In this document: positions 15,501 through 58,176 of the stretch, piece by piece
Numbering within the stretch: position 1 is the stretch's first letter
How the letters are laid out: the number at the start of each line of letters is the position of its first letter
From: Hyphomonadaceae bacterium
Lineage (GTDB): Bacteria; Pseudomonadota; Alphaproteobacteria; Caulobacterales; Aquidulcibacteraceae
Assembly (NCBI GenBank): GCA_016791445.1
Contig: JAEUMP010000010.1
Coordinates: 62,001-126,000, forward strand
Direction of reading: 5' to 3'
DNA: 64,000 nucleotides
Program-made: the position numbers and the translations under genes
Notes under the pieces: model-generated
Databases searched by the model: none
Told to the model about the DNA's origin: nothing
What the model saw: only the letters and a program-made list of their open reading frames with translations

Positions 15501-15543
15501 TGCGATTAACTCGCAAATGCAAGGTTAATGCGAGTCAATCGCA
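15501..15543 (-). promoter_or_regulatory. tandem Fur-like operators upstream of the heme-type receptor
   Basis: Two 15-base inverted repeats, TGCGATTAACTCGCA (15501-15515) and TGCGAGTCAATCGCA (15529-15543), each have 7-1-7 symmetry with TGCGA/TCGCA ends. Start-to-start spacing is 28 bases. They lie just upstream of the minus-strand receptor gene, consistent with iron-dependent repression by Fur or a related regulator (Irr and RirA boxes differ). Confidence 0.6.
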
Positions 15544-15569
15544 ATTCCGTTGGGTGCGGGCCCTTGCAT

Positions 15570-16850: not shown

Positions 16851-16923
16851 GGGGCCTCCGGCGGCGACGGGCCGCATTCGGTCTTCAACGCGCGGGCCTA
16901 GAGCTAGGCGCCATAGCCCTTAT

Positions 16924-17799
16924 ATGGGCGCGATGACGCACACGCTTGTCTCCGCCTGGACGAAAGCCCGCCGCACCCTCGAGGCCGCCGGCGTGGAACT
17001 GCCCGTTTTCGATGCGCGCCTGCTTCTGGAAGCCGCGACCGGCGTCGCGCGTCTCGACATCCTCACCGATCCGCACCGGCCGATCGCCGAAGACGCCGCC
17101 GCGCGTCTCGACGCCCTCGTCGCCCGCCGTGCGGCGCGGGAGCCGGTCGCCTACATTCTCGGGAAGAAGGCCTTCTACGCCATCGACTTCGCCGTAGGCC
17201 CCGCAGTCCTCACGCCGCGTCCGGATACCGAGATGGTCGTGGAAGCCGCACTTGCGGCGCTGCCGGTAGATGCGCCCGCGCGCGTGCTGGATCTGGGGGT
17301 CGGCTCCGGTGCGATCCTCCTGTCGATCCTTTCTGCGCGGCCGTTGGCCAGCGGGATCGGCGTCGATGCAAGCCCGGAGGCGCTTGTATTCGCGGAGTCG
17401 AACGCTGCCGCGCTGGGGCTCACGCCGCGCGTGGTGATGCACCACGGGGACTGGGGGGCGGGCGTCGAGGGGCCGTTCGATCTCATCGTCTCCAACCCGC
17501 CCTATATCCCCACCGGCGACATCCCCGGCCTCGCGCCCGAAGTCTCGGTGCACGAGCCCCGGCTGGCGCTGGACGGCGGTGCGGACGGGCTCGCGGCCTA
17601 TCGCCGGCTCTGGCCGGACGTGGCGCGGCTTCTGAAGCCCGGCGGGCGGTTCTGCGTCGAGATCGGGATCGGGCAGGGGCCCGACGTTTCGGCCCTTGCC
17701 CGGGCCGCCGGCCTTGAGGTGGAGGCGATCAAGCCGGACCTGGCGGGCATCGCTCGGGTGGTCCTTGGGCGGCGGCCGCCGGCGGTTGCGGCGGGCTGA
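16924..17799 (+). CDS. prmC: peptide chain release factor N5-glutamine methyltransferase
   Basis: PrmC (HemK) methylates the Gln of the GGQ motif of RF1 and RF2. The 291-residue protein has an N-terminal helical substrate-recognition domain (about 5-90, with EPVAYILGKKAFY), the SAM-binding motif VLDLGVGSGAILLS at about 121-134 and the catalytic NPPY at 191-194. PEVSVHEPRLALDGG is also typical. ATG 16924 gives the usual length. It precedes the DUF4167 gene and clpB, the standard alphaproteobacterial order, but is separated from its substrate gene prfA by a block of receptor genes. Confidence 0.93.
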   Translation: MGAMTHTLVSAWTKARRTLEAAGVELPVFDARLLLEAATGVARLDILTDPHRPIAEDAAARLDALVARRAAREPVAYILGKKAFYAIDFAVGPAVLTPRPDTEMVVEAALAALPVDAPARVLDLGVGSGAILLSILSARPLASGIGVDASPEALVFAESNAAALGLTPRVVMHHGDWGAGVEGPFDLIVSNPPYIPTGDIPGLAPEVSVHEPRLALDGGADGLAAYRRLWPDVARLLKPGGRFCVEIGIGQGPDVSALARAAGLEVEAIKPDLAGIARVVLGRRPPAVAAG

Positions 17800-18162
17800 A
17801 GCCGACCCTCCTGAAAAAGGGGTTGGCGCGGGGCGCGCTGGCGGGTATCTTTGCCTATCGGCGGAATCGCCCGGAAGCCTTTCTGGACCCATGAAGGGTC
17901 CCCCGTCAGGGATGAGGCGGTCGGCGTCACGCCAGCTGCTCCAACGGCAAAGGTCATGTCCCGCGCGGTGTGCGTCAGTCGCGGGATTTCGTCCCGGCGC
18001 AGAACCGCCTCGGACGCCAGCCGAACGAACCCCGGCCCGGCCGGCCGGAACAACTGTCTTCGTGGACGATTGATCGAAGAGCTTTAGCGCAAGCGACCTG
18101 ACGCAAGTCTCCCAAACCCAACGACCATCGCCGGTCGCCCGTGGACGGGCGCGCGGCGCAAC
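17800..18162 (+). other. 363-base intergenic region, no gene identified
   Basis: No convincing ORF, RNA gene or terminator is seen. A short inverted repeat TCTTCG/CGAAGA with a 12-base spacer lies near 18057-18080, close to where a promoter for the DUF4167 gene would be expected. Frames open on both strands lack Shine-Dalgarno sequences and have atypical composition. Confidence 0.4.
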
Positions 18163-42852: not shown

Positions 42853-43485
42853 ATGGCGCTGCAGATCTTGATCGCGGATGACCACGAGCTGTTCCGCAGC
42901 GGCTTGAAGCAGCTGGTGGTGGACACGCTCGGTGCTGACCAAGTTCGCGAAGCCGACAGCCTCGATAAGGCAATCGAAGTCCTCACCAATGAGGGTGCCG
43001 GCGATCTCATTCTGGTTGATCTGCGCATGCCTGGCATGAACGGCGCGGAATCGCTGGCGGCGCTTCGCGACGGCTTTCCTTTGGCCAAGATTGCAGTCGT
43101 CTCCGCTTGGGAAGAGCGCGCCGACATTCTGGCGGCGCTCGGCGCGGGCGTGAACGGCTACGTTCCGAAATCTCTTTCATCATCTGAAATCACGGCGGCG
43201 CTGCGCTCCATTCTGGAGGGCCGCATCTACGTGCCGCCCGCGATCGGGCGGCGCGAGCCTGGCGCGGGCGCGATGCCGCCGCCGGACGGAGGATTCGCCC
43301 CCGACAAGCTCACACTGCGTCAGAAGGAAGTGCTGAACGAACTGCTGAAGGGGCAGGCGAGCAAGGAGATTGCGCGAACGCTCGATATCGCCGAGGGCAC
43401 CGTGAAGATTCACCTCGCCGCGATTTACCGCGCGCTCGGCGTGCGTACGCGCGCTGAGGCGATCGCGAAATTCAGGGCCGGCTGA
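42853..43485 (+). CDS. NarL/FixJ-type response regulator
   Basis: 210 residues. Receiver domain 1-120 with IADDHELFRSGL (acidic pocket), phospho-acceptor Asp56 in LILVDLRMPGMNG and Lys in YVPKSLSS. The GerE/LuxR helix-turn-helix lies near 150-205: LTLRQKEVLNELLKGQASKE then IARTLDIAEGTVKIHLAAIY. The downstream hybrid kinase is convergent and their ends overlap by 14 bases, so partnership is likely but unproven. It lacks an upstream Shine-Dalgarno of note. Targets are unknown. Confidence 0.9.
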   Translation: MALQILIADDHELFRSGLKQLVVDTLGADQVREADSLDKAIEVLTNEGAGDLILVDLRMPGMNGAESLAALRDGFPLAKIAVVSAWEERADILAALGAGVNGYVPKSLSSSEITAALRSILEGRIYVPPAIGRREPGAGAMPPPDGGFAPDKLTLRQKEVLNELLKGQASKEIARTLDIAEGTVKIHLAAIYRALGVRTRAEAIAKFRAG

Positions 43486-45214
43486 GTTCCAGCAGAGCGG
43501 CTTGCCGCAGCGCCTCGCCCGTGACCGGCTTGATCAGCACCGCATATCCGGACTGCTTCAGCTCCCCTAATGTCCTCGCTTCGATGTCGCCGGTGACGAT
43601 GATCACACGTGGGGGCGGGTCGATGCGCGCGACAGCGTCGTTGGCAATGCGCAGGCCGCTGAGTTCGCCGTCGATACGCAAATCCATGATGAGAAGCCGC
43701 GGACGCATCCCAGCGTTCAGAGCGGTTGCGAAGTCGCCTTCATTGGCGAAGCCGCGCGCCTCAGTCCCAAGGTCGAGCAAGGCGGACACCATCGCGCCGC
43801 GCGAGAGATCGTTATCATCGACGACCAACACCTGCGCGCCGCGTGCAGCGTCACCGTCGGCCTCACGGGCCGCGCCTTGAGCGGCTGCAGCGCTGGCCAG
43901 CGGCACGCGCAGCGTAAAGCGCGTGCCGTCGCCCGGTGCTGAATCCAATTCGAGGCTGATGTCGAGCAGACGGGCGAGGTGGCGCGCGATGGTGAGCCCG
44001 AGCCCCAGGCCGCCGCCGCGCTTATCGAGACGTTCGAATTCTTCGAAGATGCGGCCGTGCTCGTCCTCGGGAATGCCAGGGCCATCATCTGCAATGACTA
44101 TTTCAGCAAATTGGCCGATTTCCTGGGCGGTTACGCGCGCGCCGCCGCCGTGAAGGACGGCGTTGGCCACGAGGTTCGACAAAATCTGCCCAAGCAGGAC
44201 AGGATCGGTGCGCACATGCACGGCGGGCAATGGCGCAGGGATGCTCGCGCCCGGATGAGCGGCGGCGACGCGCTCGACGATGTCGTCGAGCGGCGTTTCG
44301 ATGAAATCCGGCGTAATCACGCCAGCCTGCATGCGCGCGAGATCGACGAGCGCGGCGAACATGCCGCTCATCGACTGCACTGCGTGCTCCATCTTGTCGA
44401 TGATTTCGCGCGCTTCATTGCCTTGGACGCGCCGCTCAAGTGCGCTGAGATAAAGCGTCAGCGCATGCAGGGGCTGGCGCATATCGTGACTGGCGACCGC
44501 CAGGAAGCGGGACTTCGCCATGTCCGACGCGCGCGCGCTCTCGCGCGCCTGCACAGCCGCAGCGTCGGCGATGCGCCATTGATGCTGCGAACGCCTCAAT
44601 GCCACAAAGCCGATGAGCGCGGTGCCCACGGTCAGCGCCAACAAGATTCCGGCGATTTGCGCGACCCGGAGGTCTGTCGCTTCTTCGCGCTGGCGCGAAA
44701 TATCGATTCGGCTGTTCAAAAGCGCGTGCAGGTCTTCGGCTGCGCGCAAGACTTCCTCCGAGCGCGTCAAGTTGCGCGCGCTGGTGCGCGGCCGCGCCAA
44801 TTCGGTCTGAATTTCATTGAAACGCGCGTCGATCAGCGCCGCGAACCGATCCAGCGCCGGGCCGACGGCCGGGTCGCTTCCCATGTAGGCGCGCGCCGCA
44901 TCGATGTGCCGGTGCGCCTCTTCGTGTGAGGCGATGAGATGGGCTCGGGATTCCATTGGCCGCCCGCCCCGGTATTCGGCGGCGAAGATTTCGGCCTCAC
45001 GCTGCGCTAGCGCAGCGCCAAAAATCTCGGCGCGGGCGCGGCGCACATTGGTGACGACGTCGAGTTCGCTGCGGCCGAGCGAGGCCTGCGCCCAAAGCAT
45101 CGCCACCAGGATGAAGGCGAGAAGTGCGGCGACCGCGAGCGCGCCGAGCAACGCTACGTCCGCCCGCATGGGCTGACGTTTCGGCGAGAGGTCAGGCCCC
45201 TGCGGCGCGCTCAC
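43472..45214 (-). CDS. hybrid sensor histidine kinase
   Basis: 580 residues. Two membrane helices (19-43 and 185-206) enclose a periplasmic helical sensor region of about 140 residues. The kinase core has the H-box SHDMRQPLHALTL with phospho-acceptor His243, N-box NLVANAV near 347-353 and G1/G2 boxes ADDGPGIPEDEHGRIFEEFE and GGGLGLGLTIARHLA. A C-terminal receiver (460-578) carries Asp511 (LIMDLRIDGELSG) and Lys562. Phospho-relay through the receiver is expected. The convergent NarL-type regulator gene overlaps its 3' end by 14 bases. The stimulus is unknown. Confidence 0.9.
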   Translation of the reverse strand: MSAPQGPDLSPKRQPMRADVALLGALAVAALLAFILVAMLWAQASLGRSELDVVTNVRRARAEIFGAALAQREAEIFAAEYRGGRPMESRAHLIASHEEAHRHIDAARAYMGSDPAVGPALDRFAALIDARFNEIQTELARPRTSARNLTRSEEVLRAAEDLHALLNSRIDISRQREEATDLRVAQIAGILLALTVGTALIGFVALRRSQHQWRIADAAAVQARESARASDMAKSRFLAVASHDMRQPLHALTLYLSALERRVQGNEAREIIDKMEHAVQSMSGMFAALVDLARMQAGVITPDFIETPLDDIVERVAAAHPGASIPAPLPAVHVRTDPVLLGQILSNLVANAVLHGGGARVTAQEIGQFAEIVIADDGPGIPEDEHGRIFEEFERLDKRGGGLGLGLTIARHLARLLDISLELDSAPGDGTRFTLRVPLASAAAAQGAAREADGDAARGAQVLVVDDNDLSRGAMVSALLDLGTEARGFANEGDFATALNAGMRPRLLIMDLRIDGELSGLRIANDAVARIDPPPRVIIVTGDIEARTLGELKQSGYAVLIKPVTGEALRQAALLELSRP

Positions 45215-46395: not shown

Positions 46396-47151
46396 CTAGC
46401 AGGCGTCGTCGGTCTTGAGCACGGCGGGGAGCGTCATCAGGAGGATCCAGAACTCGCCGAGCCAGGACCATTCCTCGAGATACTCGCGATCGTAACGGAT
46501 GCGGCGCTCATAGCCCGTGCTCGAGCGGCCGCTCACTTGCCACAGGCCCGTGATGCCCGGGCGCACGAGCAGATAGTAGCGGCGATCCTTGCCGTAACGA
46601 TTGAGCTCGGCGCGCGTCACCGGGCGCGGGCCGATGACGCTCATATCGCCGCGCACGACGTTCCAGAGCTGCGGCAGCTCGTCGAGGCTGGTCTTGCGCA
46701 GGAACGCGCCGATCTTGGTGATGCGCGGATCCTCGCGCAGCTTTTGGCTTTCCTGCCATTCCGCGGCGGCGCGCGGATCTGAGAGAAGAATCTGCGCCAG
46801 ACGCTCTTCGCTATCGATCGCCATGGTGCGGAATTTCAGGCACTCGAAGCGGGCGCCTTGGCGGCCGACGCGCGTGTGGCGATAGAAGACCGGGCCGCGG
46901 TCCGTCGCTTTGATCATGAGCGCGATGGTGAGGAATGCCGGCGCGAGGAAGATCAGCGCCGCCCACGCGATCGCCAGATCAAACGCGCGCTTGGCGCGGC
47001 CGTTGGCGGCGCGCACTTTGCTGATGAGGCGGCGATCGGTGATCCGGTGCGCGACGCGCGCTTCCGCCACGCGGGATCGTTCGCCTGCGTTTTGCCGGCC
47101 CCGAAACGGGATGCGGATGGCAGACCCCGTCTCGATCATTTGATTCGCCAT
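46396..47151 (-). CDS. priming sugar transferase (polyprenyl-phosphate)
   Basis: Initiating sugar-phosphate transferase of the bacterial sugar transferase family (RfbP/WbaP/PglC type), 251 residues from ATG 47151; upstream in-frame ATGs extend to 47286 without membrane or conserved features. One membrane or re-entrant helix (AIAWAALIFLAPAFLTIALMI, 61-81) precedes the catalytic domain: LKFRTMAIDSEE with the D-E pair near 113-116, TSLDELPQLWNVVRGDM (155-170), SVIGPRPVTR and RPGITGLWQVSGR (197-209). It transfers a hexose-1-phosphate to undecaprenyl phosphate. All consensus residues are present, unlike its paralogue at 52096. Confidence 0.9.
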   Translation of the reverse strand: MANQMIETGSAIRIPFRGRQNAGERSRVAEARVAHRITDRRLISKVRAANGRAKRAFDLAIAWAALIFLAPAFLTIALMIKATDRGPVFYRHTRVGRQGARFECLKFRTMAIDSEERLAQILLSDPRAAAEWQESQKLREDPRITKIGAFLRKTSLDELPQLWNVVRGDMSVIGPRPVTRAELNRYGKDRRYYLLVRPGITGLWQVSGRSSTGYERRIRYDREYLEEWSWLGEFWILLMTLPAVLKTDDAC

Positions 47152-47735
47152 ACGTCCGTCCCCTGAGCCATTCCCTCCGCTAATGGCTTGGTAACTTCTG
47201 GCACGCGTCCATTGTGCAGTGCAATCCCAGACGCGTCTGAGGACAACGCGACGCAGCATTACGCTTGTCAGGAACCTTTTCACCATTACGCTCGTTCGTG
47301 CGGCGTACTCGGTGCGTCGATCGGATGAGGGAGTACCGGCCGTGGGGGCTTTACGCCAGCCCAGGCAACCGGAACGGGAAGGGGCCGAAAAGGCTGCGCT
47401 TTCCCCCGAGACGCGAAACGCGTCAGGGCCGCCACGTTGGATCGTGGTGAGCGGTCTTGTCCTTTATTGCGCTGCGTTTTGGTTGATTATCTGGAGCGCT
47501 GGCAGCTTTGGCGTTCAATTGGTCCGCACTGCGTTCGCGGGCCAACACTAAGCAAATTGTAGGTAGGGTTGGGAGGCGTCTGATGCGCGAGCGCGTGCGT
47601 GGAAAGCACAGGGGCGGCGCATTCTCGCCGCGCGTGCAACAAATTGCTCCCGGCCCCGGTTTGACGGCACCATTGGCGCAGCGAAATGTCCGCCCCTCGA
47701 TCTGGGCGGCGCTGATCGTTCCAGGGGGTTCACAG
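47152..47735 (+). other. 584-base region: promoter area and possible single-helix ORF
   Basis: Between the divergent sugar transferase and beta-barrel genes. CATTACGCT recurs at 47257-47265 and 47284-47292 (27-base spacing), a possible regulator site. A frame at 47219-47551 encodes up to 110 residues with one membrane helix near its end (WIVVSGLVLYCAAFWLIIW), which could be a real small gene starting further in; no good Shine-Dalgarno is seen. Nothing else is recognised. Confidence 0.35.
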
Positions 47736-48971
47736 GTGCAGATCCGTCCGCTTCTCAGCGCGTTCGCCGCGTCGCTGATCGTCTTCACGCCATGCCACGC
47801 GCTGGCGCAGACGCAGGCTCAACCCGATGACAGCGTGTCGGTGCGGGAACGGCCGCGGCCTGAGTACGATCCGCTTGGCCTGCGCTTCGGCAGCTTCACC
47901 GCCAACGCTTCGCTCGATCTCGGCGCCACCAGCACCGACAATCTGTTCGCCCAGCCGAGCGGGTCGGAACAAGACGACATCGTCTACACCGTCAGCCCGA
48001 ATGTGCAGTTGAAATCGGATTGGTCGCGCCATGCGCTGGAAGTGCAAGCCGGCGCGCGTTTCACCAATCACCAGGATTTCTCAAGCGAAGATGCAAACAG
48101 CCATTATGTGCGCGCCGTTGGCCGGCTTGATGTCGGCACGCGCACCAGCATCAGCGCAACGGCCGGCTTTGCGCACGAAGTCGAGCCGCGCACCGATCCG
48201 GACTCGCCGGTGACGCTTGACCCGGTTGAGTACGATCGCACCGAAGCGTCGCTGAACGCACAACACACCTTTAATCGCTTCCGCGTCAGCGGCGGCGTTG
48301 CCCGCACCGAGTACAGTTTCGATGGTTCGCAGAGCTTCCGCGACAATGAAGAGACGGTCGCGCGCGGCCGCCTCGACGCGGAACTGACCCCGCGCATCGG
48401 CGTGCTGCTGCAAGGCACGGCCGACGAACGCGACTACGACCGGGACGTGCCGTTCGATCTCGACTCCAGCGGCCGCACGGTGCTCGCCGGTGTCACCATC
48501 AATTTCACCGACCTGATGCGCGGCGAATTCTCGGTCGGGCAATTCAGCCGCGACTATGACGATCCGGGCATCGGCACGGTTGATGGCTTGGCCGCATCCG
48601 GCGATCTCGATTGGTACATCACGCGCCTGACTACGTTGCACTTCAGCGCCCGCCGCAATGCGGAATCCGTTGTTGGCGGCGGCACCGGCGCGCCCTTCGT
48701 CGAAACCTCATACGGCGCTCACGTCGATCACGAATTGCTGCGCAACGTGATCCTCAGCGCTGGCGTGCAGGCGGGCAAGCGGGAGTACGACAAGGTGATC
48801 GACCGCGAGGATGACTTTGTCTACGGCGAGGTCGGCGCGGACTACATCGTGAACCGTCGCGTGGCGTTGCGTGCGCGCTACAACTTCGACCAAGTGGATT
48901 CGACGGGTCTCAACGCCTACCGGGACTATGAGGTCAAAGCGTTCTCGTTGGGCGTGACGCTGCGCCTCTAG
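47736..48971 (+). CDS. outer-membrane beta-barrel protein, polysaccharide locus
   Basis: 411 residues from GTG 47736, preceded by AGGGGG; starting here gives a clean signal peptide (IRPLLSAFAASLIVFTPCHALAQ). In-frame ATGs at 47508 and 47583 would bury that signal. The mature protein is made of many amphipathic strands with alternating aromatic residues, for example ALEVQAGARFTNHQDFSSED and HFSARRNAESVVGG, and ends in a strand ending VTLRL. It resembles the BBP2-type beta-barrels of exopolysaccharide loci (VpsM/HfsB-like, by eye). It may help export or anchor polysaccharide. Confidence 0.75.
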   Translation: MQIRPLLSAFAASLIVFTPCHALAQTQAQPDDSVSVRERPRPEYDPLGLRFGSFTANASLDLGATSTDNLFAQPSGSEQDDIVYTVSPNVQLKSDWSRHALEVQAGARFTNHQDFSSEDANSHYVRAVGRLDVGTRTSISATAGFAHEVEPRTDPDSPVTLDPVEYDRTEASLNAQHTFNRFRVSGGVARTEYSFDGSQSFRDNEETVARGRLDAELTPRIGVLLQGTADERDYDRDVPFDLDSSGRTVLAGVTINFTDLMRGEFSVGQFSRDYDDPGIGTVDGLAASGDLDWYITRLTTLHFSARRNAESVVGGGTGAPFVETSYGAHVDHELLRNVILSAGVQAGKREYDKVIDREDDFVYGEVGADYIVNRRVALRARYNFDQVDSTGLNAYRDYEVKAFSLGVTLRL

Positions 48972-49024: not shown

Positions 49025-49480
49025 ATGCCGGCGGTAGCGTCATCCAAGGTCAAACGGGCCAGCAAGGCTGGCCAGGCGCGCCGGCCGTCCCGCAAGACGC
49101 CGGCGCGTTCGCGTACGCTGAACGACGCCTTGGCCGAAGCGGCCTGGGCGGAAGCAGACGCAGCGCTCGCTGAAGCGCTGGCCGATCTCGATGAAGTCGA
49201 GGGCGCGGAAACCGCCGCAGCCCGGCGCACAGCGCTTGCCATGCTGGCGCAATCGCTGGCGCGGGCAGGCCGTAAACGCGGCCTCACACGCATTGGCGAG
49301 GTGGGCGGCAAAGCCGCTTACAGCGCCGCCGCGCATGAGCTTGCGGTCCCAGCCAAACGCGCGCCGAAGCGCGTTGTCATCAGCGCGCGCGGCGTCGCCC
49401 GTGGCGGAGCGGTGCTGGCTAAGCCGCGGGTGAAACCGGCAACGCGCGGCAAGAAGCCGGGACGGAAGAAGAAGCCGTGA
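49025..49480 (+). CDS. Lys/Arg/Ala-rich basic protein, partner of the Hsp70-like gene
   Basis: 151 residues. A basic N-terminus (KVKRASKAGQARRPSRK), an Ala/Glu/Asp-rich helical middle (DALAEAAWAEADAALAEALA), and a strongly basic tail (RVKPATRGKKPGRKKKP). The pattern resembles alanine/lysine-rich histone-like or nucleoid proteins, but no family is certain. Its TGA overlaps the GTG start of the following Hsp70-like gene (GTGA at 49477-49480), so the two are translationally coupled. Nucleic-acid binding, or being a client or regulator of the ATPase, are guesses. Confidence 0.55.
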   Translation: MPAVASSKVKRASKAGQARRPSRKTPARSRTLNDALAEAAWAEADAALAEALADLDEVEGAETAAARRTALAMLAQSLARAGRKRGLTRIGEVGGKAAYSAAAHELAVPAKRAPKRVVISARGVARGGAVLAKPRVKPATRGKKPGRKKKP

Positions 49481-50862
49481 CCGAGTGGACGCTCTGCCTC
49501 GATTTCGGCACCGCTTATTCCAAAGCGGCCGCGGCGCCGACCGGGGCTTGGGCGCGCTTTGATCCCGCCACGGTGCGTCCGCTGATGCTCGCGGGCGAGG
49601 AAGCGGAAACCAACCCGTTCCTGCTCGAAAGCGCGGTGTTCGTCGACGATCAGCAAGTGCTGTTCGGCAGTGCGGCGGTGCAGCGCGCCGATCAGTTCAG
49701 CGGCGGCAAACGCCGGGCGCTACGCTCGTTCAAGACGCTGCTGAGCGTGAGCGATCTCGATCGCGCGCTAGCCACCAACGTGCCGGGCTCGATCGATCCG
49801 CATCGCCTCTTTCAAATGCGCGATCTGATCGTGCTCTATCTCGCCTATTTGCTCGCCGCGATTAATCGCGCCGCGGGGCAGGACGGCGACATCTCGCAAG
49901 CGACGGGCCTCAAGGTGCGCTACGCGGCGCCGGCATGGCGCGACGCGGACAGCGCCGGCACGCACGCCTCCATCCTCCGGCTGTTCGGTGAAGCAGAAGC
50001 GCTGCGCAATGCGCTGGGCAAGAAGCTGCTGTCGCCGGAAGGCTTGTCGATGGCGCTCGTGACCAAGGCCGTGCCCAAAGCGATGGCCGCGCCGGAACCG
50101 CTGGAGATGAGCCTCATCTTCGAAGCGCCCGCGGCGGCGGCGTACACATCCATTGGTTTGCGCGATGCCGGCTCGCACTTCATCGTGGTCGACATGGGCG
50201 CGGGCACGACCGACATCGCCGGGCTCGTGCGCGACCGCGACGGCATCCAGGAACTCGCCGACGCGCGCTACACGCTGAAGCAGGCGGGCGATTTTCTCGA
50301 CGGCATCATCGCCAACCGCGTGCTCAAAGCGGCGTCGTGGGCGCGCGGGACAGAGGCGCAGACCGCGCTCTGGGCCATGCTGATGCGGCAGATGGCGGAC
50401 GTGAAAGAGACGCTGTTCGCCGAGGGGCGCGTGAGCATCCGTGCGCAAGGGCGCGGCGTGACCGTCGCCATGCGCGACATTGAGCGCGATCAGGACTTCA
50501 GGGAATTCATCAAGACGCTGGAGCACGCTTACGAGCACAGCATCGCGGTGGTGCGCGGCGACGCGCTGGTGCGCGGACGCGCCGAGGTCGAGGCTATCGC
50601 GGTCGGCGGCGGGGCCGCCGCGCCCTTCATTCAGGCGCTGGTGAAGCAGAAATATCGCGGCAAGCCGCGCGTGACGGCGCGCCCTGCGACACCCGATTGG
50701 GCGCATGCGCCCGTGTTCGCCGGCAACCTCGCGCCGGTGTTCCCGCAGCTTGCCATCGCGATCGGGGGGGCGCTGGCGCCGGACGAGATGCTCGCCGTCA
50801 ATGGCGGGGGCGTCAGGCGCCTCGCAGCCGGCCGAAACGATACCCAGGCGGCACGCGATTGA
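49477..50862 (+). CDS. Hsp70-like actin-fold ATPase without substrate-binding domain
   Basis: 461 residues, GTG start coupled to the preceding basic-protein gene. Actin/Hsp70 ATPase motifs are present: phosphate 1 LDFGTAYSKAA (8-18), phosphate 2 VVDMGAGTTDIAG (237-249), and adenosine AVGGGAAAPFIQAL near the C-terminus. A helical connector QRADQFSGGKRRALRSFKTL also fits. DnaK is about 640 residues; here the C-terminal substrate-binding domain is absent, as in YegD-like and other Hsp70-type ATPases. The GTTD signature is kept, so ATP binding is likely. Its 3' end overlaps the convergent BY-kinase-like gene by 50 bases. The role is unknown. Confidence 0.75.
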   Translation: MTEWTLCLDFGTAYSKAAAAPTGAWARFDPATVRPLMLAGEEAETNPFLLESAVFVDDQQVLFGSAAVQRADQFSGGKRRALRSFKTLLSVSDLDRALATNVPGSIDPHRLFQMRDLIVLYLAYLLAAINRAAGQDGDISQATGLKVRYAAPAWRDADSAGTHASILRLFGEAEALRNALGKKLLSPEGLSMALVTKAVPKAMAAPEPLEMSLIFEAPAAAAYTSIGLRDAGSHFIVVDMGAGTTDIAGLVRDRDGIQELADARYTLKQAGDFLDGIIANRVLKAASWARGTEAQTALWAMLMRQMADVKETLFAEGRVSIRAQGRGVTVAMRDIERDQDFREFIKTLEHAYEHSIAVVRGDALVRGRAEVEAIAVGGGAAAPFIQALVKQKYRGKPRVTARPATPDWAHAPVFAGNLAPVFPQLAIAIGGALAPDEMLAVNGGGVRRLAAGRNDTQAARD

Positions 50863-51844
50863 CCCATACCCCTGCAGGAGAGCGCTCGCGCCTCTGCAGC
50901 ATCCGCAGCGCTGCTCTCACGGCCCGGAGCGGGGTGCGGTCCCAGGCGGTGACGACCACCGTCTTGCTGGCGAGGCCAGCGATCAATGCGCCTTCGGACG
51001 GCCCCAGCGCAGGCGGGCAATCAAGCACGACGAGATCGTATTCTTGCGCAAGCCGCTGCAGCAGGATCGGCAAGCCGCGCGCGCCGATCAGCGTGCGCCA
51101 CGGGCTGCGCATGCGCGCCGCTGGCAGGATGTGCAGCCCCGTCTCGTCTTCCTGTTCGACATAATGGCGCCAGCTGTCGGGATGCTCGGTGGCCTCGAGG
51201 ACGCCGGCTTCGGGATCCAAGTCGAAACCGCGTGACAGCGTGCGCCGGCGCAGATCGCAATCGATGATGATGACATTGCGCCCCTGCTGTGCGGCGGCGA
51301 CTGCGGTGCAGAGCGCCGCCGTGGTCGCGCCTTCGTCCGGGGTCGAGGCGATGAACGCGATCAGCCGTTCGCGAGAAAGCGTATCCTGCAGATCACGGAA
51401 GGCCGTGGCGAACGCCGATGCCGGCTGGAAGGCGATACAGCCAAGCGGCGAGCGCTGATCCGGCGGCAGTTGGCGCAGCACTGATTCAGTCAGCTCGGGT
51501 GCGGCGCCCAAGACCGCGTAGGCGCGGTTCTTGCCGAAGCTCGCAATCGAGGTGATGGTGTTGCGGCCAAGTTCGCGCACGAGCGCAACGACAAACGCGG
51601 CGCCCGCTGACAGCGGCAGCCAGAAGACAGACGCCGCTTGCCAGCGCACGCCGCCGCTGACGTCATACAAAACGCCGATCGCCGTAACCACGGCTGTCGC
51701 GACGGCGAAGAGGGGAAGCTGACGAACAATTGCGCGCTTGAGCCGAGCCAGCGCGAGCGATTTGACGGGCTCGCGGCGTGCGCGTGGGCCGGGTGCTTGC
51801 AGCATCTCCCTGGGCACACGATCACCGACGCTCGATGAGCTCAC
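50813..51844 (-). CDS. BY-kinase-like protein with degenerate Walker A (pseudo-kinase)
   Basis: About 343 residues from GTG 51844, chosen for AGGAG nine bases upstream (an ATG at 51913 is also in frame). Two membrane helices near 41-60 and 73-90, then the P-loop domain of CapB/CpsD/Wzc-type tyrosine kinases. Walker A reads STPDEGATTAA (168-178): Ala173 stands where the conserved Lys of GEGKTT should be. Walker A' VIIIDCD (191-197) and Walker B LVVLDCP (271-277) are intact. The C-terminus has only one Tyr instead of the usual cluster. It is therefore probably not an active autokinase and may regulate the intact kinase at 55293. Confidence 0.72.
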   Translation of the reverse strand: MSSSSVGDRVPREMLQAPGPRARREPVKSLALARLKRAIVRQLPLFAVATAVVTAIGVLYDVSGGVRWQAASVFWLPLSAGAAFVVALVRELGRNTITSIASFGKNRAYAVLGAAPELTESVLRQLPPDQRSPLGCIAFQPASAFATAFRDLQDTLSRERLIAFIASTPDEGATTAALCTAVAAAQQGRNVIIIDCDLRRRTLSRGFDLDPEAGVLEATEHPDSWRHYVEQEDETGLHILPAARMRSPWRTLIGARGLPILLQRLAQEYDLVVLDCPPALGPSEGALIAGLASKTVVVTAWDRTPLRAVRAALRMLQRRERSPAGVWVNRVPPGYRFGRLRGA

Positions 51845-52040
51845 GTCCTTTTGCTCCTGCCCGGCTCGTGGGGTGGGATTGTTTGAGGCGCCGCGCCCAC
51901 TGGCGCAACACATAGTTTGCAGCGCGAATAGTTCGCGCGTCGCGGGTGAATTACTTGAGCGGTATCAAAGCCGTCAGGGAAACTTGGCCGTTTCATCATA
52001 GTGTCCGCAAAAAATAAGGGGACAGCTTCGTTAAGAAGCG

Positions 52041-52089
52041 TTGATCTTTCCTGGCGTTTTTCTAACTTTAGATCTGTCAGGCTCGGGAT
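52041..52089 (+). promoter_or_regulatory. candidate promoter of the degenerate sugar transferase
   Basis: TTGATC (52041-52046) and TAACTT (52063-52068), 16-base spacer, in an AT-rich patch between divergent genes. A small hairpin GCTTC-GTTA-GAAGC lies just upstream (about 52025-52039). Inference from sequence only. Confidence 0.35.
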
Positions 52090-52095
52090 TTGCCA

Positions 52096-52887
52096 ATGCT
52101 CATCCAGGTGCCTCGCACGCCCCCGGGCGCGCCAGGTTCGCAGAACGCGGAGAACTGCAGCCCCTTCGAGGCCGGGCTCAGGCGTGACCTCGCGAGCGCT
52201 CCGATCGTGTCCTACGATTCGATGCTTGGCGGCTGGGCCAAGCGCGCCATTGACCTAACAGTAGTGCTCATTTCGCTCCCGCTCTGGTTGCCGGTGATGC
52301 TGGGCGCGGCCTTGTGGGCGAAGCTGAGGCATCCCGCCCCCGTGTTTCAGGCGCGCGAGATGGTCGGCTATGGCGGCCGCAGCTTCCAGCTGCTTGCGCT
52401 TCGCGTTGATCCGCCGTCCGCAACGATCGAGGTGCTGCGCGTTGCAGGCGATGTGGCGCCGGCGCCGGCGAACGATTGGACGCTGATCGCCAGCCAAGCC
52501 GACGATGCGCAGGCCAAGTGGCGGCGCGCGCTTTCGCGCTTGCCGATGCTGCTAAACGTGCTGCGCGGTGAGATGGCGCTGGTCGGCCCCACGCCGCTTT
52601 CACTTAAGGAAATCGAGCCGCTGAAGACTGCGCGGCGCTATTACCTCAGCGCCCGTCCCGGCGTGATCGGCGTCAGCGCCATCGTCGATGCCGACGAGGA
52701 AGAGGCGAGCCAGTACAAGCTCTATGCGTTGTCATGGTCGTTGAGCACGGATGCGCTGATCCTGTGGGATGCGCTCGATTCGTTGCTGCGGCGCGGCGAG
52801 TTGTGGAAGCCTCATCCCGGTTTGAAGGCGCGCGGCCAGGCGGCGGCAGAAGCCGCGGCGACGCGGCGTCGCGGCGCGGCGCAATAA
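52096..52887 (+). CDS. degenerate sugar-transferase homologue
   Basis: 263 residues from ATG 52096. One hydrophobic helix (AIDLTVVLISLPLWLPVMLG) and then the sugar-transferase fold: LPMLLNVLRGEMALVGPTPL (149-168) and RPGVIGVSAIVDADEE (187-202) align with LPQLWNVVRGDMSVIGPRP and RPGITGLWQVSGR of the active transferase at 46396. The active-site KFRTMxxD-E segment has become LLALRVDPPSATIEV, the DELPQ acidic pair is replaced (ALSRLPM), and the GPRP Arg is Thr. The catalytic residues are therefore missing. The stop lies 49 bases before the next glycosyltransferase gene. It is possibly a scaffold or regulatory protein. Confidence 0.75.
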   Translation: MLIQVPRTPPGAPGSQNAENCSPFEAGLRRDLASAPIVSYDSMLGGWAKRAIDLTVVLISLPLWLPVMLGAALWAKLRHPAPVFQAREMVGYGGRSFQLLALRVDPPSATIEVLRVAGDVAPAPANDWTLIASQADDAQAKWRRALSRLPMLLNVLRGEMALVGPTPLSLKEIEPLKTARRYYLSARPGVIGVSAIVDADEEEASQYKLYALSWSLSTDALILWDALDSLLRRGELWKPHPGLKARGQAAAEAAATRRRGAAQ

Positions 52888-52936
52888 GCGCCGCACGCGT
52901 CGACCATTGCCAGACTCGCGGCGCTTGCCGATAGGA

Positions 52937-54082
52937 GTGCCGCGAGGTGCGCGGGACTTGGCGGCCGATCTCATCTTCTTCGGGCACGACGCCCGCGACG
53001 CAGCGGTGCAGCGGCGCATCGGCGCGTTCGCCCAGGCCGGCGCGGACGTGCTGGCGTTCACCATGCGCCGCGGCGGCTCGATTGCGCCGGCATGGCGCAA
53101 TGTCGATCTCGGCGAGACCCGCGATGCGGCCTTCCTGCAGCGCTTGCTGGCGTTGCACCGGGCCCGGCCGGTGCTGGCGGCGCACAAAGCGGAGCTTGCC
53201 GCGGCCAGCGTATTTTACGCGCGCAATCTCGACATGGCGCTGTTGGCGCAATGGGCCAAGAGCATGAGCGGCTCGCGCGCGGCTATCGTTTACGAATGCC
53301 TCGACATTCACCGCTTCATGACGCGGCGCGATCCGCTCGGCGCGGCGATGCGCGCCATGGAACGCGACCTGTTGCGCCGTACCGCCTTGGTGGTGGTCAG
53401 CTCGCCCGCGTTCGTGCGCGAGTATTTCGACAAGGCTCAGCCAGGGGCGGCGGAGTTCATGCTGGTGGAGAACCGGCTGCCGCGCGGCTTCGCCTACGGG
53501 CCGCGTCCGAGCGGGGAAAAGCCGGTTGGTCAGCCGTTGCGCATCGGCTGGTTCGGCAATCTGCGCTGCAAGCGCAGCCTGGCGCTGCTGCTGGCGCTGG
53601 CGGATCGTTTTCCTGATCGCGTCGCTATCGAGATGCGCGGCGTGCCTGCACGCACCGAGCTGACGGATTTCGAAGCCAGCATTGCCGGGCGCGCCAATGT
53701 GCGCTTCGGCGGACGCTATGCGTGGCCAGATGATCTGGCAGCGCTCTATGCAGGCGTCGATCTGGTTTGGGCTGGCGATTTCCACGATCCTGGCGCGAAC
53801 TCGAAATGGCTGCTGCCGAACCGGCTCTACGAGGGCGGCTATTACGCCGTGCCGCCGGTCGCGCCTGCCGACAGTGAAACCGGCCGCTGGATCGGCGAGC
53901 ACGGCTTCGGTTTCCCCCTGCCAGAGCCGCTCGAACAGACGCTGCCGCACTTCCTCCAGCAGCTGCGGCCGGAGGCAATTGCTGCGGCGCGCGCCCGCAT
54001 GCTGTCGGCGCCGGAGAGCGTGTTTGTGCAGGCCGAAGACGAACTGAAGCGCGTGCTGGACGCGGCGAGGGCGCGCGCATGA
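52937..54082 (+). CDS. glycosyltransferase, GT1/GT4-like
   Basis: GT-B fold glycosyltransferase, about 381 residues if GTG 52937 is the start; TTG 52907 and TTG 52958 (GAGG ten bases upstream) are alternatives. The N-terminal Rossmann half has DLIFFGHDARDAAVQRR and VFYARNLDMALLAQW. The C-terminal donor-binding half has LRIGWFGNLRCKRSLALLL, DLAALYAGVDLVWAGDF and NRLYEGGYYAVPPVAP with WIGEHGFGFPL. It presumably adds a sugar to the lipid-linked polysaccharide precursor; donor and acceptor are unknown. Its stop overlaps the next glycosyltransferase start by four bases (ATGA). Confidence 0.8.
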   Translation: MPRGARDLAADLIFFGHDARDAAVQRRIGAFAQAGADVLAFTMRRGGSIAPAWRNVDLGETRDAAFLQRLLALHRARPVLAAHKAELAAASVFYARNLDMALLAQWAKSMSGSRAAIVYECLDIHRFMTRRDPLGAAMRAMERDLLRRTALVVVSSPAFVREYFDKAQPGAAEFMLVENRLPRGFAYGPRPSGEKPVGQPLRIGWFGNLRCKRSLALLLALADRFPDRVAIEMRGVPARTELTDFEASIAGRANVRFGGRYAWPDDLAALYAGVDLVWAGDFHDPGANSKWLLPNRLYEGGYYAVPPVAPADSETGRWIGEHGFGFPLPEPLEQTLPHFLQQLRPEAIAAARARMLSAPESVFVQAEDELKRVLDAARARA

Positions 54083-55308
54083 GCAAGCCGACCATGCTCA
54101 TGTTGCTCGGCCGCAATCCGTTCGCGGAGCGCAGCGGGCGCGCCGTGATGTTGCGCCAGCGCATTGAGCAGGCGCGCCAGCGGTTTGAAACGCACATCGT
54201 GGTTGTCGGCCATGCCAGCGGCGATGCGAGCGATGAGGGGTTGCACTTTCTGCCGATGGCGAACCCCGCAGCGATTGCCTTGAATGCGCTGCGCATGTCC
54301 GGCTTGCCGCTGCAGACATGGCTCTATCATAGCGCGCACGCCCGCGCCGAGATCGCTGCGCGCGTGCGCGAAACGGGCGCTCGGGCCATCTTCATCGACA
54401 TGTTGCGGCTGGCGCCGCTGGCCGGCGATGTGCCCAGGAGCGTTGCGCGCCTGGTCGATTACGACGACCTTCTGTCGGAGCGGTACCGTCTGGCCGCTTC
54501 GGCGGAGGACTATGACGTGATGGGCTTCCTGGCCCGCCGAGTCGGTCCGCTTGCTCCTGCGGCGCGCGCGGTGGCGGGGCCGCTGTTGCACGAGGAGGCG
54601 CGCCGGTGCGCCGCGTACGAGCACGAGATGCTGGTCCATGCCGATCTCGTGCTGTTCACCTCGCCGCGCGAGGCGCAGATGCTGGCGCGCGAAGGCGTGC
54701 ATGTGCTGGCCGCGCCGCCACTGCTTGCGCCCCATCCACGCACGGACGGTGTTGGCGAACGGCTCATCTTCCTCGGCAATCTGCGCTATGCAGAGAATAT
54801 CGTGATGCTGCGGGCGCTGGCGGATGCGGTGTCGGCGCTGGAGCAGCAGGGCGAACTCCCAGAGGACGTGACGCTCGACATCGTCGGCGAACATGCGCCC
54901 GATCTGCCGCACGCGTTCGACGCTAAACGCTTCCGTTTCATCGGCCGCATTCCCGATCTCGCTACGCTGGCCGGTGCCGGGATTTTTCTCGCGCCGGTTA
55001 TCGGCGGCACTGGCGTGAAGCTGAAAGTGTTGGACGGGCTCGCGCTAGGCTGTCCGGTGGTCGCCACGGGCAAGGCGCTTGAGGGGCTGTCGGCCCGCGC
55101 CAATCGCGACATGCTCGTGGGCGAAAGCGTCAAAGACGTGCTGCGGGCGGCGATCGCGCTGCGAAGCCGGACGGCGTTGAAAGCGAAGCTCGCAGCGCGC
55201 GGGCGCGCCTATCTTGAGCGCGCGCACGCGCCCGCTTTGGGCGATGCCATCGCCGAAGCCATGGCGAAGGCCGTCGAGCGCGCGGGCGCGCGTCAGGAGA
55301 CGCTGTAG
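54079..55308 (+). CDS. glycosyltransferase family 4-like
   Basis: 409-residue GT-B enzyme, ATG 54079 overlapping the previous stop by four bases. Landmarks are LLGRNPFAERSGRAVMLRQR at the N-terminus, and in the donor domain RLIFLGNLRYAENIVMLRAL, FRFIGRIPDLATLAGAGIFL, and the GT4-like TGVKLKVLDGLALGCPVVAT. The last segment corresponds to the E-x7-E type donor site region, although the exact Glu pair is not clear by eye. Coupled to the preceding glycosyltransferase, so two sequential sugar additions are plausible. Its 3' end overlaps the convergent wzc-like gene by 16 bases. Confidence 0.85.
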   Translation: MSKPTMLMLLGRNPFAERSGRAVMLRQRIEQARQRFETHIVVVGHASGDASDEGLHFLPMANPAAIALNALRMSGLPLQTWLYHSAHARAEIAARVRETGARAIFIDMLRLAPLAGDVPRSVARLVDYDDLLSERYRLAASAEDYDVMGFLARRVGPLAPAARAVAGPLLHEEARRCAAYEHEMLVHADLVLFTSPREAQMLAREGVHVLAAPPLLAPHPRTDGVGERLIFLGNLRYAENIVMLRALADAVSALEQQGELPEDVTLDIVGEHAPDLPHAFDAKRFRFIGRIPDLATLAGAGIFLAPVIGGTGVKLKVLDGLALGCPVVATGKALEGLSARANRDMLVGESVKDVLRAAIALRSRTALKAKLAARGRAYLERAHAPALGDAIAEAMAKAVERAGARQETL

Positions 55309-57437
55309 TACGACTTCGATTGGTAGAAGTAGAGCGAGTCCCCGTACGACTGCCAATGCGGCTGCACGCAATTGAGCGCGATGCCGAGCACCTTGCCGCC
55401 AGCGGCTTCGGTCTGTTGCACGGCGGTGCGCACCGCGCCGAGGGCCGAGCGGCCAGCGCGGGCGACGATCACACAAGTGTCGGCCTGCTTGGCCAGAATG
55501 CGCGTTTCGGCGACAGCCAGGATCGGCGCGCAATCGAGCACCACCAGATCGTAGTGAGCGCGCAGCTCGCTGATCAGGTTTTCCATCGCTTCCGAGCCGA
55601 ACACGTCGCGCGGGGTGAAGCCTGAGGTGGCCACCGGCAACACGTGCGCGTCCGAATTCGGGTCGCGCACGATCGCCGCGCGCCACGGCGCTTCGCCAGC
55701 CAGCACTTGCAGGAGGCCGACATCGGTCTCGATGTCGATCACATCGTTGATCGATTGCTTGCGCAGGTCGCAGTCGACCACGACGACGCGCTGGCCTGAC
55801 ATGGCCGCGACGCGCGCAAGGCACATCGAAATCGTCGTCTTGCCTTCGTCAGGCAAGGCCGAGGTGACGGCGACGACTTTCACCGAGAAGTCGAGCTTGG
55901 AATAGACGATCACCGTGCGCAGCACGCGCAGCGCCTCGGTGAAGGCCGACATCGGCCGGCCGACGAGGTAGCCGGAAGGGTGGCGTTCCGCGGGCGGCAT
56001 CTGCCGCATCATCTTCTTGGAGATGATCGGGATCGAAGCGATCGCCGGATAGCCGACGCGGGCTTCAAGATCGTCGGCGTTCTTCACCGATTGATCGAGG
56101 ATTTCAGCAATCACGCCGGCGCCGAGGCCGAGCATGAGGCCGAGCGCAATCGCCAGCGCCAGCGCCACGCGCAGCTGCGGCGAGGAGGGTGAGCCTGGCA
56201 GCGACGCGTAGGCGAGCAGACGCGCGTCGGAGGTGTTCAGCTGATCCTGGTCGGCGATTTCCTGATAGCGCTGCAGGTAGCTTTCATAGACTTGGCGGCT
56301 GGCCGTGGCCTCGCGCTCGAGTTCGCGCAGGCGCACGGATGCGCTGGAATTGCTGGTAACTTCGCCAGTGGCGCTGCGCAGCGAGCCTTGCAGGGTCGCA
56401 AGGCGCGCACGCGCGACCTGGACCTCGTTGCTCATGTTGATCGAAATGCGCTGGATTTCGCGCTGAATCTGCTGCTCGATATCCTGACGCTCGGCGCGGA
56501 CAGCCTGCACCGCAGGGTGCGTCGGCAGGTAGCGGTTTTCCAGATCCGACTGGCGGCGCGCAATGTCGGACTCGCGGTCGCGCAGACTGCGGATGGTTTC
56601 GGAATTGAGTGCGTTGCCGATGGTTTCCAGCGGCGCGCCGGATTGGCGCAGCTCCTGAAGCTGGCGGAAGCGGGCTTCGCGTTCGGCCAGATCGGCCTGC
56701 GCCTGCAGCACTTGCGTCTGCACGTTGCTGATCTGCTGTTCGACCAGCGGCGCGCCCTGGGCGGAGATGAGCCCCGATTGCGCCCGATAGGTTTCGGCGG
56801 CGCTTTCCTTGGCTTGCACGTCTTCGCGCAATTCGGCGAGGCGGCGGGCGAGCCAGGAATTGGCGCGCTGGGCGGTGTCGATGCGCTGATTGACCTGGCT
56901 GGCGATGTAAACGTCAGCGTAGGTGTTGGCGATCAGCTGAGCGCGCGCCGGGTCGGTCGAGCGCGCTTGGATTTCGATCACGTAGGTGCCGCCGCGGCGG
57001 CGCACGTCGAGCGCGCCAGCGAGGCTGCCGGCGATCTGGTCCGGGCTGGCGTTGGATCCCTGATTGCGCGCTTGCATGCCGAGCGCGGTGGCGAGTTCGC
57101 CCATCAGCGCCGGCGAGCGCAGCAGCTCGATTTCGGAATCGATCGCTTGCGATTGCAGCGGCAGCGAGCCCATCACCGCTTCGGAGTTCAGCACGCGCTC
57201 CTGGCGGGGATTGATGATGAGCAGCGAGGTGGCGCTGTAGCTCGGCGTCCGCATCATCAGGAACGCGAACGCCACGACCATCGCCGTTACGCCCACGATC
57301 GCCATGATTAACGCGCGTCTGCGCAGCATCTGCAGCGCGGCGGTGACGCCGAACAGTTCGGCTAAGCCCTGAGGCGCCGCACTTGAGGGATATCCTGGCG
57401 GGCCGCTGGCGGGAGTCTCGTTGTTCATCATATTCAT
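55293..57437 (-). CDS. polysaccharide co-polymerase / BY-kinase (Wzc-type)
   Basis: 714 residues. An N-terminal helix (RALIMAIVGVTAMVVAFAFL, about 41-60) and a Wzz domain with YSATSLLIINPRQERVLNSE begin the protein; a long periplasmic coiled-coil (about 180-400) follows, with a second membrane helix (LALAIALGLMLGLGAGVIAE). The BY-kinase domain has Walker A ALPDEGKTT with Lys533, A' VVVVDCDLR and B LVVLDCAP, all intact. The C-terminus has a Tyr cluster (SYGDSLYFYQSKSYYSVS, five Tyr). It controls chain length and export through autophosphorylation. Downstream on the strand of the Wza-like gene. Confidence 0.9.
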   Translation of the reverse strand: MNMMNNETPASGPPGYPSSAAPQGLAELFGVTAALQMLRRRALIMAIVGVTAMVVAFAFLMMRTPSYSATSLLIINPRQERVLNSEAVMGSLPLQSQAIDSEIELLRSPALMGELATALGMQARNQGSNASPDQIAGSLAGALDVRRRGGTYVIEIQARSTDPARAQLIANTYADVYIASQVNQRIDTAQRANSWLARRLAELREDVQAKESAAETYRAQSGLISAQGAPLVEQQISNVQTQVLQAQADLAEREARFRQLQELRQSGAPLETIGNALNSETIRSLRDRESDIARRQSDLENRYLPTHPAVQAVRAERQDIEQQIQREIQRISINMSNEVQVARARLATLQGSLRSATGEVTSNSSASVRLRELEREATASRQVYESYLQRYQEIADQDQLNTSDARLLAYASLPGSPSSPQLRVALALAIALGLMLGLGAGVIAEILDQSVKNADDLEARVGYPAIASIPIISKKMMRQMPPAERHPSGYLVGRPMSAFTEALRVLRTVIVYSKLDFSVKVVAVTSALPDEGKTTISMCLARVAAMSGQRVVVVDCDLRKQSINDVIDIETDVGLLQVLAGEAPWRAAIVRDPNSDAHVLPVATSGFTPRDVFGSEAMENLISELRAHYDLVVLDCAPILAVAETRILAKQADTCVIVARAGRSALGAVRTAVQQTEAAGGKVLGIALNCVQPHWQSYGDSLYFYQSKSYYSVS

Positions 57438-57597: not shown

Positions 57598-58176
57598 TCA
57601 GAACAGCCGTTCACCGATGCGGATGGTGTCGCCCGGCAGGACCGGCGTGGCGATGGATAGCTGAACCACCCGTTCCTCGGTCTCATTCGCGTGGCGGATG
57701 TAGACGCGGCTCTGGTTCGCCCGATAGGTGAATCCGCCCGCGGTGGCGACCGCGTTCAGGACCGTGAGGCTGGCCGAATAGGGGTACGTGCCTGGGCGCT
57801 GCACTTCGCCAAGGATGAAGAATGGCCGGTAATTGGCGACTTCCACGCTGACATTGGGCTGGCGGATGAATTGGCTCAGCGCCTGTTGCAGCGAGGTGGT
57901 GAATTCAGGGATGGTGAGCCCTGCGGCATGCACCTCGCCGACCAGCGGGTAGGCGATCATGCCCTGCGACCCGACCAGGTACTGGCCGGTCAGTTCAGCC
58001 TCGTTGAACACGGTGATGCGCAGCTGGTCGCCGGGGCCGAGGCGATATTCGGCAGTCTCCGCTTCGGCCAGTGGCGTGCTGGGCATGGTCGCGCACGCGC
58101 CAAGCGCGGTTGCGCCAGCACCGAACAGAAGCCCACGCAACAGGGCGCGGCGATTGTGCCAAATCGGCTCAGACAT
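57598..58176 (-). CDS. polysaccharide export lipoprotein (Wza/GumB-like)
   Basis: 192-residue outer-membrane export protein from ATG 58176, preceded by GGGAGG. Basic N-terminus RRALLRGLLFG and lipobox LGACAT, Cys near 28. A Poly_export domain follows: EYRLGPGDQLRITVFNEAEL and QGMIAYPLVGEVHAAGLTIP (about 43-95), then one SLBB domain NYRPFFILGEVQRPGTYPY with VLNAVATAGGFTYRANQSRV. It lacks the C-terminal trans-membrane helix of E. coli Wza, like the short GumB/ExoF-type proteins. It precedes the Wzc-like gene on the same strand, the usual export pair. Confidence 0.88.
   Translation of the reverse strand: MSEPIWHNRRALLRGLLFGAGATALGACATMPSTPLAEAETAEYRLGPGDQLRITVFNEAELTGQYLVGSQGMIAYPLVGEVHAAGLTIPEFTTSLQQALSQFIRQPNVSVEVANYRPFFILGEVQRPGTYPYSASLTVLNAVATAGGFTYRANQSRVYIRHANETEERVVQLSIATPVLPGDTIRIGERLF

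What the first reader, a model, noticed from the sequence alone, without database searches (positions are those of the whole stretch)
52096..52887. Sugar-transferase paralogue stripped of its catalytic residues
Compared with the intact enzyme at 46396-47151, the KFRTM..D-E active site, DELPQ and GPRP arginine are lost, but the fold anchors (LP.L.NV.RG.M and RPG) remain. With the pseudo-kinase next door it forms a degenerate pair, suggesting a regulatory or scaffold role in polymer initiation.
Basis: partly seen in the sequence, partly recalled or inferred. Interest (0 to 1): 0.6.

Follow-up and report, generated by a model that had tools for sequence, protein, structure and literature searches.

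The report
Conserved dead sugar transferase, paired pseudokinase
Beside a slime-polysaccharide gene cluster, one group of bacteria keeps a copy of the enzyme that normally starts such polymers, but with its whole catalytic site replaced and always next to an equally disabled kinase, so the two probably act as a membrane scaffold or regulator rather than as enzymes.

Summary
Window 52096-52887 (+) encodes a monotopic phosphoglycosyl-transferase (PGT, PF02397) fold whose catalytic residues are gone. It is not decaying: 23 orthologues exist in one bacterial family. None keeps the Asp-Glu dyad or PglC Arg88; Lys59 and Arg111 survive in 3 each. The membrane-helix anchors are kept. The old site carries a new conserved pattern (R88 to W in 19/23, D93 to E in 18/23, E94 to R in 20/23). 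dN/dS is 0.15-0.41, the clade is single, and the AlphaFold model matches only PglC and WbaP in the PDB.

A BY-pseudokinase (Walker-A Lys lost in 28/28) lies beside it in all 23 genomes, divergent in the 16 loci read in full. Six genomes have the pseudokinase alone, in two nested clades, suggesting two losses. Both belong to a cassette with a beta-barrel protein, an Hsp70-like ATPase and a hidden GrpE-like protein. A role in 'initiation' is not shown: the active PGT differs between genomes while the pair stays. Best reading: a non-catalytic membrane scaffold for polysaccharide assembly, a new pseudoenzyme branch of a known family. Function is inferred.

The parts
52096..52887 (+). psPGT: PGT-fold protein without catalytic residues. 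PglC equivalents in this protein: D11=D53, P24=P66, K59->A101, R88->W142, D93->S147, E94->R148, R111->T166, D168=D219
   Evidence: fold
52228..52329 (+). Predicted re-entrant membrane helix region (residues about 45-78) with DX12P anchors D53 and P66
   Evidence: helix 40-78 in the model; D11 kept 22/23 and P24 18/23
52096..52230 (+). Family-specific N-terminus (MLIQxP ... FEAxLRRDLASxPxVSYD), conserved in most of the 23 orthologues
   Evidence: invariant columns; alignment
50813..51844 (-). psBYK: BY-kinase-fold protein with hydrophobic N-terminal segments, Walker-A Lys replaced by Ala, no Tyr-rich tail. ORF is open to 51913; the GTG at 51844 is the start suggested by orthologues (inference)
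51845..52095 (.). Intergenic region between the divergent psBYK and psPGT genes
49477..50862 (+). Hsp70-like ATPase of about nucleotide-binding-domain length; its 3' end overlaps the 3' end of psBYK
   Evidence: PF00012 26.1 bits vs cut-off 20.6; motifs
49025..49480 (+). GrpE-like small protein, overlapping the Hsp70-like gene by 4 bases
   Evidence: fold match to GrpE, hhalign P 7e-5; no Pfam match
47508..48971 (+). Beta-barrel outer-membrane protein (PF10082) of the cassette
46396..47151 (-). Intact PGT with canonical active site (comparison enzyme)
52907..55308 (+). Two glycosyltransferase genes following psPGT; present between psPGT and Wzc only in some genomes
55293..57437 (-). Wzc: co-polymerase with intact BY-kinase domain and Tyr tail
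57598..58176 (-). Wza-type export protein (start by homology)

Best explanation
psPGT is a non-catalytic, membrane-embedded PGT-fold protein that works with the adjacent BY-pseudokinase as a scaffold or allosteric regulator of an exopolysaccharide assembly complex. Shown by computation: fold kept, catalytic residues replaced by a new conserved pattern, purifying selection, constant neighbourhood with psBYK, membership in a conserved cassette with an Hsp70-like/GrpE-like pair. Inferred: that psPGT and psBYK bind each other, that they sit on the Wzc/Wza machine or another assembly step, and that the Hsp70-like pair assembles or disassembles the complex using ATP.
For: Active-site table over 23 orthologues with 7/7 canonical controls. 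77/77 other nearest loci keep the dyad. dN/dS 0.15-0.41. Single clade. Model matches only PglC and WbaP. psBYK beside psPGT in 23/23 and divergent in 16/16 read in full. psBYK Walker-A Lys absent in 28/28. Two inferred losses of psPGT, followed in one clade by damage to Walker A'/B of psBYK. Distances of psPGT follow psBYK (r 0.66) more than Wzc (0.29) or Wza (0.14). Precedent: BY-pseudokinases EcpK and HfsB proposed as scaffolds (PMC12004946).
Against: No interaction, complex model or phenotype. Six genomes keep psBYK without psPGT, so the pair is not obligate for psBYK. EcpK and HfsB serve co-polymerases that lack a kinase domain, whereas the Wzc here has its own intact one. Distance correlations come from linked genes and non-independent pairs.
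Confidence: 0.55

Rival explanations
1. psPGT is a regulatory subunit that binds the active PGT directly (a 'prozyme'), tuning the first step of synthesis.
For: Same fold as the active enzyme; WbaP is a dimer and PGTs can be regulated by partner proteins or by a BY-kinase (PMC12802240, PMC6441080). In several genomes the active PGT lies in the same cluster.
Against: Eight psPGT genomes checked have no close orthologue of the window's PGT (best 41-47% identity), while psBYK, Hsp70L and the GrpE-like gene stay. Small PGTs such as PglC are described as monomers (PMC12802240).
Confidence: 0.22
2. psPGT is still an enzyme, with a Glu nucleophile or a different reaction.
For: Glu stands at the Asp93 position in 18/23 and the pocket residues are conserved.
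Against: In the window protein it is Ser. Glu94, Arg88 and mostly Lys59 and Arg111 are also replaced, so metal, nucleotide-sugar and Und-P contacts are missing together.
Confidence: 0.08
3. psPGT binds Und-P or a lipid-linked sugar as a sensor without turning it over.
For: The membrane-helix anchors are kept.
Against: Arg88 and probably Arg145, which bind the Und-P phosphate in PglC (PMC10519829), are lost (Arg88 0/23; SGR Arg kept in about 2/23).
Confidence: 0.08
4. It is a decaying duplicate without function.
For: Catalytic residues are lost, and two losses of the gene are inferred.
Against: 23 open orthologues, dN/dS well below 1, a new conserved pattern at the old site, a conserved family-specific N-terminus.
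Confidence: 0.03

Closest known systems
Monotopic phosphoglycosyl transferases (PglC; catalytic domain of WbaP; PF02397)
   Same: Sequence family, predicted fold (Z 16.8-20.0), re-entrant-helix anchors
   Different: No Asp-Glu dyad, no Arg88; Lys59 and Arg111 nearly always lost; own conserved N-terminus
BY-pseudokinases EcpK (Myxococcus) and HfsB (Caulobacter), PMC12004946
   Same: The neighbour psBYK also has a BY-kinase fold with lost catalytic residue and no Tyr tail, in a polysaccharide locus
   Different: Here the local Wzc has its own intact kinase domain, and a pseudo-PGT and an Hsp70-like/GrpE-like pair accompany it
EpsW-EpsZ regulation of a PGT, PMC12802240
   Same: A non-catalytic partner controls polysaccharide synthesis at the PGT fold
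   Different: EpsW is a response regulator and EpsZ is active; here the PGT-fold protein itself is inactive by sequence
CapAB-CapM of Staphylococcus aureus, PMC6441080
   Same: Functional link between a BY-kinase and a PGT-fold protein
   Different: CapAB acts by phosphorylation of an active PGT; here both partners lack catalytic residues
StkA and SglK of Myxococcus, PMC4319316
   Same: Hsp70-family proteins act on exopolysaccharide production
   Different: Here an Hsp70-like ATPase and a GrpE-like protein are members of the cassette beside two pseudoenzymes; function untested

Membership tests
Monotopic PGT superfamily (as a sequence and fold family) | Match to PF02397 above the curated cut-off | tested here: met
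   72.8 vs 27 bits
Monotopic PGT superfamily (as a sequence and fold family) | PGT fold | tested here: met
   Predicted model only: WbaP Z 20.0, PglC Z 16.8; the model's alignment held intact PGTs
Monotopic PGT superfamily (as a sequence and fold family) | DX12P motif and the Asp168 equivalent that hold the re-entrant helix | tested here: met
   Present in the window protein (D53, P66, D219); 22/23, 18/23 and 22/23 in orthologues
Active phosphoglycosyl transferase | Asp93-Glu94 catalytic dyad | tested here: not met
   0/23; Ser-Arg in the window protein
Active phosphoglycosyl transferase | Lys59, Arg88, Arg111 | tested here: not met
   Ala, Trp, Thr in the window protein; 3/23, 0/23, 3/23 in orthologues
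Active phosphoglycosyl transferase | Transferase activity | not testable with these tools
   Needs a biochemical assay
BY-pseudokinase of EcpK/HfsB type (neighbour psBYK) | BY-kinase fold lacking catalytic residues | tested here: met
   VpsO match E 1e-24; Walker-A Lys absent 28/28
BY-pseudokinase of EcpK/HfsB type (neighbour psBYK) | No C-terminal Tyr cluster | tested here: met
   0-2 Tyr in the last 25 residues vs 3-5 in Wzc
BY-pseudokinase of EcpK/HfsB type (neighbour psBYK) | Partner co-polymerase lacks its own BY-kinase domain | tested here: not met
   The Wzc of the locus has an intact Walker A and a Tyr tail; so psBYK is not filed under this subfamily
BY-pseudokinase of EcpK/HfsB type (neighbour psBYK) | Direct binding to the co-polymerase | not testable with these tools
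   Needs two-hybrid or co-purification
GrpE (neighbour 49025-49480) | GrpE fold | tested here: met
   The 12 best PDB matches of the predicted model are GrpE chains, best E 5e-5; model pLDDT 70, pTM 0.38
GrpE (neighbour 49025-49480) | Sequence match to the GrpE family | tested here: inconclusive
   No Pfam match in 14 members; hhalign P 7e-5, probability 63%, over 37 columns

The most novel reading that the evidence does not exclude
A dedicated chaperone-type ATPase module (Hsp70-like plus GrpE-like) assembles and disassembles a two-pseudoenzyme membrane scaffold (pseudo-PGT plus BY-pseudokinase), giving an ATP-driven, phosphorylation-independent switch for exopolysaccharide assembly, built on the first described pseudoenzyme branch of the monotopic PGT superfamily.
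Probability: 0.22. Interest if true: 0.75.

Novelty: new variant of a known kind. Interest (0 to 1): 0.55.

Why it matters
In the open-access library searched I found BY-pseudokinases but no described pseudoenzyme of the monotopic PGT superfamily (absence there is not proof of novelty). A family match such as PF02397 would label the gene a sugar transferase, which its residues contradict. If the pair works as a scaffold, it would extend the phosphorylation-independent model proposed for EcpK and HfsB to the PGT fold and tie it to an Hsp70-like ATPase, giving a testable route into how bacteria control polymer assembly without tyrosine phosphorylation.

Tried and rejected
Decaying pseudogene: rejected. 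Loss common among PGTs: rejected; 77/77 nearest other loci keep the dyad. Wide distribution: not found; of 24 hits in 398 genomes of the order, 23 lie in the one family and the 24th is an ordinary PGT (G242); only the window genome hits among 385 of the class. Specific partner of the window's intact PGT: disfavoured. Pfam and PDB sequence searches for the GrpE-like protein found nothing useful; the fold search did. Literature searches for an inactive PGT in exopolysaccharide synthesis, or for this lineage's exopolysaccharide, found nothing direct. Several alignment calls failed on coordinates and one script on a file path. The first alignment of all hits ignored strand and was redone.

Full report
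WHAT IS THERE. The ORF 52096-52887 (+) encodes 263 residues. It matches PF02397 (Bac_transf) at 72.8 bits against a gathering score of 27; the intact copy at 46396-47151, on the minus strand, scores 217 bits. The two are 30% identical. The genome has three PF02397 genes, and only this one scores low.

THE LOST SITE. The literature gives the PglC active site as Asp93-Glu94, Lys59, Arg88 and Arg111, with D11/P24 (DX12P) and D168 holding the re-entrant membrane helix (PMC12802240). I mapped these on an alignment of 23 orthologues and 7 intact PGTs from the same bacterial family. Asp93: 0/23 (Glu 18, Ser 2, Gly, Val, Gln). Glu94: 0/23 (Arg 20). Arg88: 0/23 (Trp 19). Lys59: 3/23. Arg111: 3/23. D11: 22/23. 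P24: 18/23. D168: 22/23. All 7 controls have the canonical catalytic residues. The residue that is probably Arg145 (the Arg of SGR, by position) is also mostly gone. In PglC, Arg88 and Arg145 mediate Und-P binding (PMC10519829), so the lipid-substrate site is affected too. The replacements are themselves conserved (W, E, R), which fits a rewired rather than an eroded pocket; this last point is inference.

NOT CHANCE, NOT DECAY. In a scan of about 85,000 genomes the best 80 loci include three orthologues; the other 77 all keep a D-E dyad. Pairwise dN/dS for psPGT is 0.15-0.41, similar to psBYK and the Hsp70-like gene; most dS values are near or above 1, so single ratios are rough. All 23 form one clade with SH-aLRT 100 (quick tree, some long branches). 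The stop codons flagged in G012 and G075 fall at the ends of their ORFs. The AlphaFold2 model (pLDDT 77, pTM 0.70, above 90 in the core) has clear PDB matches only to PglC and WbaP (Z 16.8 and 20.0). The model's alignment held intact PGTs, which may help the resemblance.

DISTRIBUTION. 23 of 60 genomes of the family carry it: 22 of one genus (g11) and the window genome, whose two genus mates in the set do not. In the order, the only further hit among 398 genomes is an ordinary PGT; in the class, only the window genome hits among 385. The named relatives are metagenome-assembled genomes, two labelled 'Hyphomonadaceae bacterium' and one 'Alphaproteobacteria bacterium'.

THE PAIR. The neighbour at 50813-51844 (-) has a BY-kinase fold by sequence (best solved match VpsO). 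Its Walker-A Lys is absent in 28/28 homologues (Ala in 26) and there is no Tyr-rich tail, whereas the Wzc of the same loci has the Lys in 7/7 and 3-5 C-terminal Tyr. It lies beside psPGT in all 23 genomes; in the 16 loci read in full the two genes are always divergent. In G077 it is split between two frames, as are other genes of that assembly, so an assembly error is likely there. Six genomes have psBYK without psPGT. They form two clades nested among psPGT carriers, so two losses are the simplest reading (several backbone branches are weak). Both clades sit on long stems, and in one of them (G074, G081, G083) Walker A' or B is damaged as well, as expected if psBYK depends in part on psPGT. 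That is suggestive only.

THE CASSETTE. The order beta-barrel protein - 49025 gene - Hsp70-like - psBYK - psPGT - Wzc - Wza is kept in most genomes read, with the two glycosyltransferases between psPGT and Wzc only in some. The 49025 gene has no useful Pfam match, but its model (pLDDT 70, pTM 0.38) has GrpE chains as its 12 best PDB matches, and hhalign to canonical GrpE gives P 7e-5. The Hsp70-like protein matches PF00012 weakly but above the cut-off. In Myxococcus, the Hsp70-like StkA and SglK act on exopolysaccharide production (PMC4319316). Pairwise distances within the five-gene module correlate at 0.51-0.85; those of its members with Wzc or Wza lie between -0.04 and 0.45. The pairs are not independent and the genes are linked, so this is descriptive.

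HOW IT MOST LIKELY WORKS. BY-pseudokinases EcpK and HfsB are proposed to act as scaffolds for the co-polymerase through binding (PMC12004946). By analogy, psPGT and psBYK most likely form a non-catalytic membrane scaffold or regulator of the exopolysaccharide complex, perhaps assembled by the Hsp70-like pair. That psPGT instead regulates the active PGT has precedents for PGT regulation, but the active PGT changes between genomes while the pair stays: eight psPGT genomes checked lack a close orthologue of the window's PGT. The link to 'initiation' is therefore not established.

MEMBERSHIP AND NOVELTY. psPGT belongs to the monotopic PGT superfamily by sequence, predicted fold and membrane anchors, and fails every tested feature of an active PGT. 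psBYK is a BY-pseudokinase by sequence but does not fit the EcpK/HfsB pairing, because the local Wzc has its own intact kinase domain. I therefore rate this a new variant of a known kind.

LIMITS. No experiment, no model of a complex, no expression data. Genomes in the main collection are unnamed. Distance correlations and dN/dS are simple measures. The starts of psBYK and Wza were chosen by homology. That no pseudo-PGT has been described rests on an open-access library only.

Noticed in passing
window 49025-49480 (+): Protein without a useful Pfam match whose predicted fold is GrpE-like; it overlaps the Hsp70-like gene by 4 bases and is kept in the cassette of the relatives.
   Followed up: partly
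window 49477-50862 (+): Hsp70-like ATPase of about nucleotide-binding-domain length inside an exopolysaccharide cluster, with phosphate and adenosine motifs apparently intact.
   Followed up: partly
L185 2580-3932, L186 9065-10150, L187 8896-10056: psBYK genes in genomes without psPGT show further loss of Walker A' or B motifs and long branches, as if relaxed after psPGT was lost.
   Followed up: partly
L044 and L045 (G012), 15531-17972 of the joined region: The two glycosyltransferases that follow psPGT appear as one 813-aa open frame in this genome, possibly a gene fusion.
   Followed up: no
L197 6721-8166 and 9459-10328 (G242): A genome of another family of the order has an Hsp70-like relative (33% identity) near an intact PGT and a Wzc, a possible wider or older arrangement.
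   Followed up: no
L038 4527-7738; L041 and L043; also L037: Four psPGT genomes (G032, G036, G018, G022) carry a second Wzc next to a different type of intact PGT some kilobases from the cassette.
   Followed up: partly
L182, L183, L184 (G026, G029, G076): Two or more adjacent homologues of the window's hybrid histidine kinase (43472-45214) lie near the cassette in the three genomes of one psPGT-negative clade.
   Followed up: no
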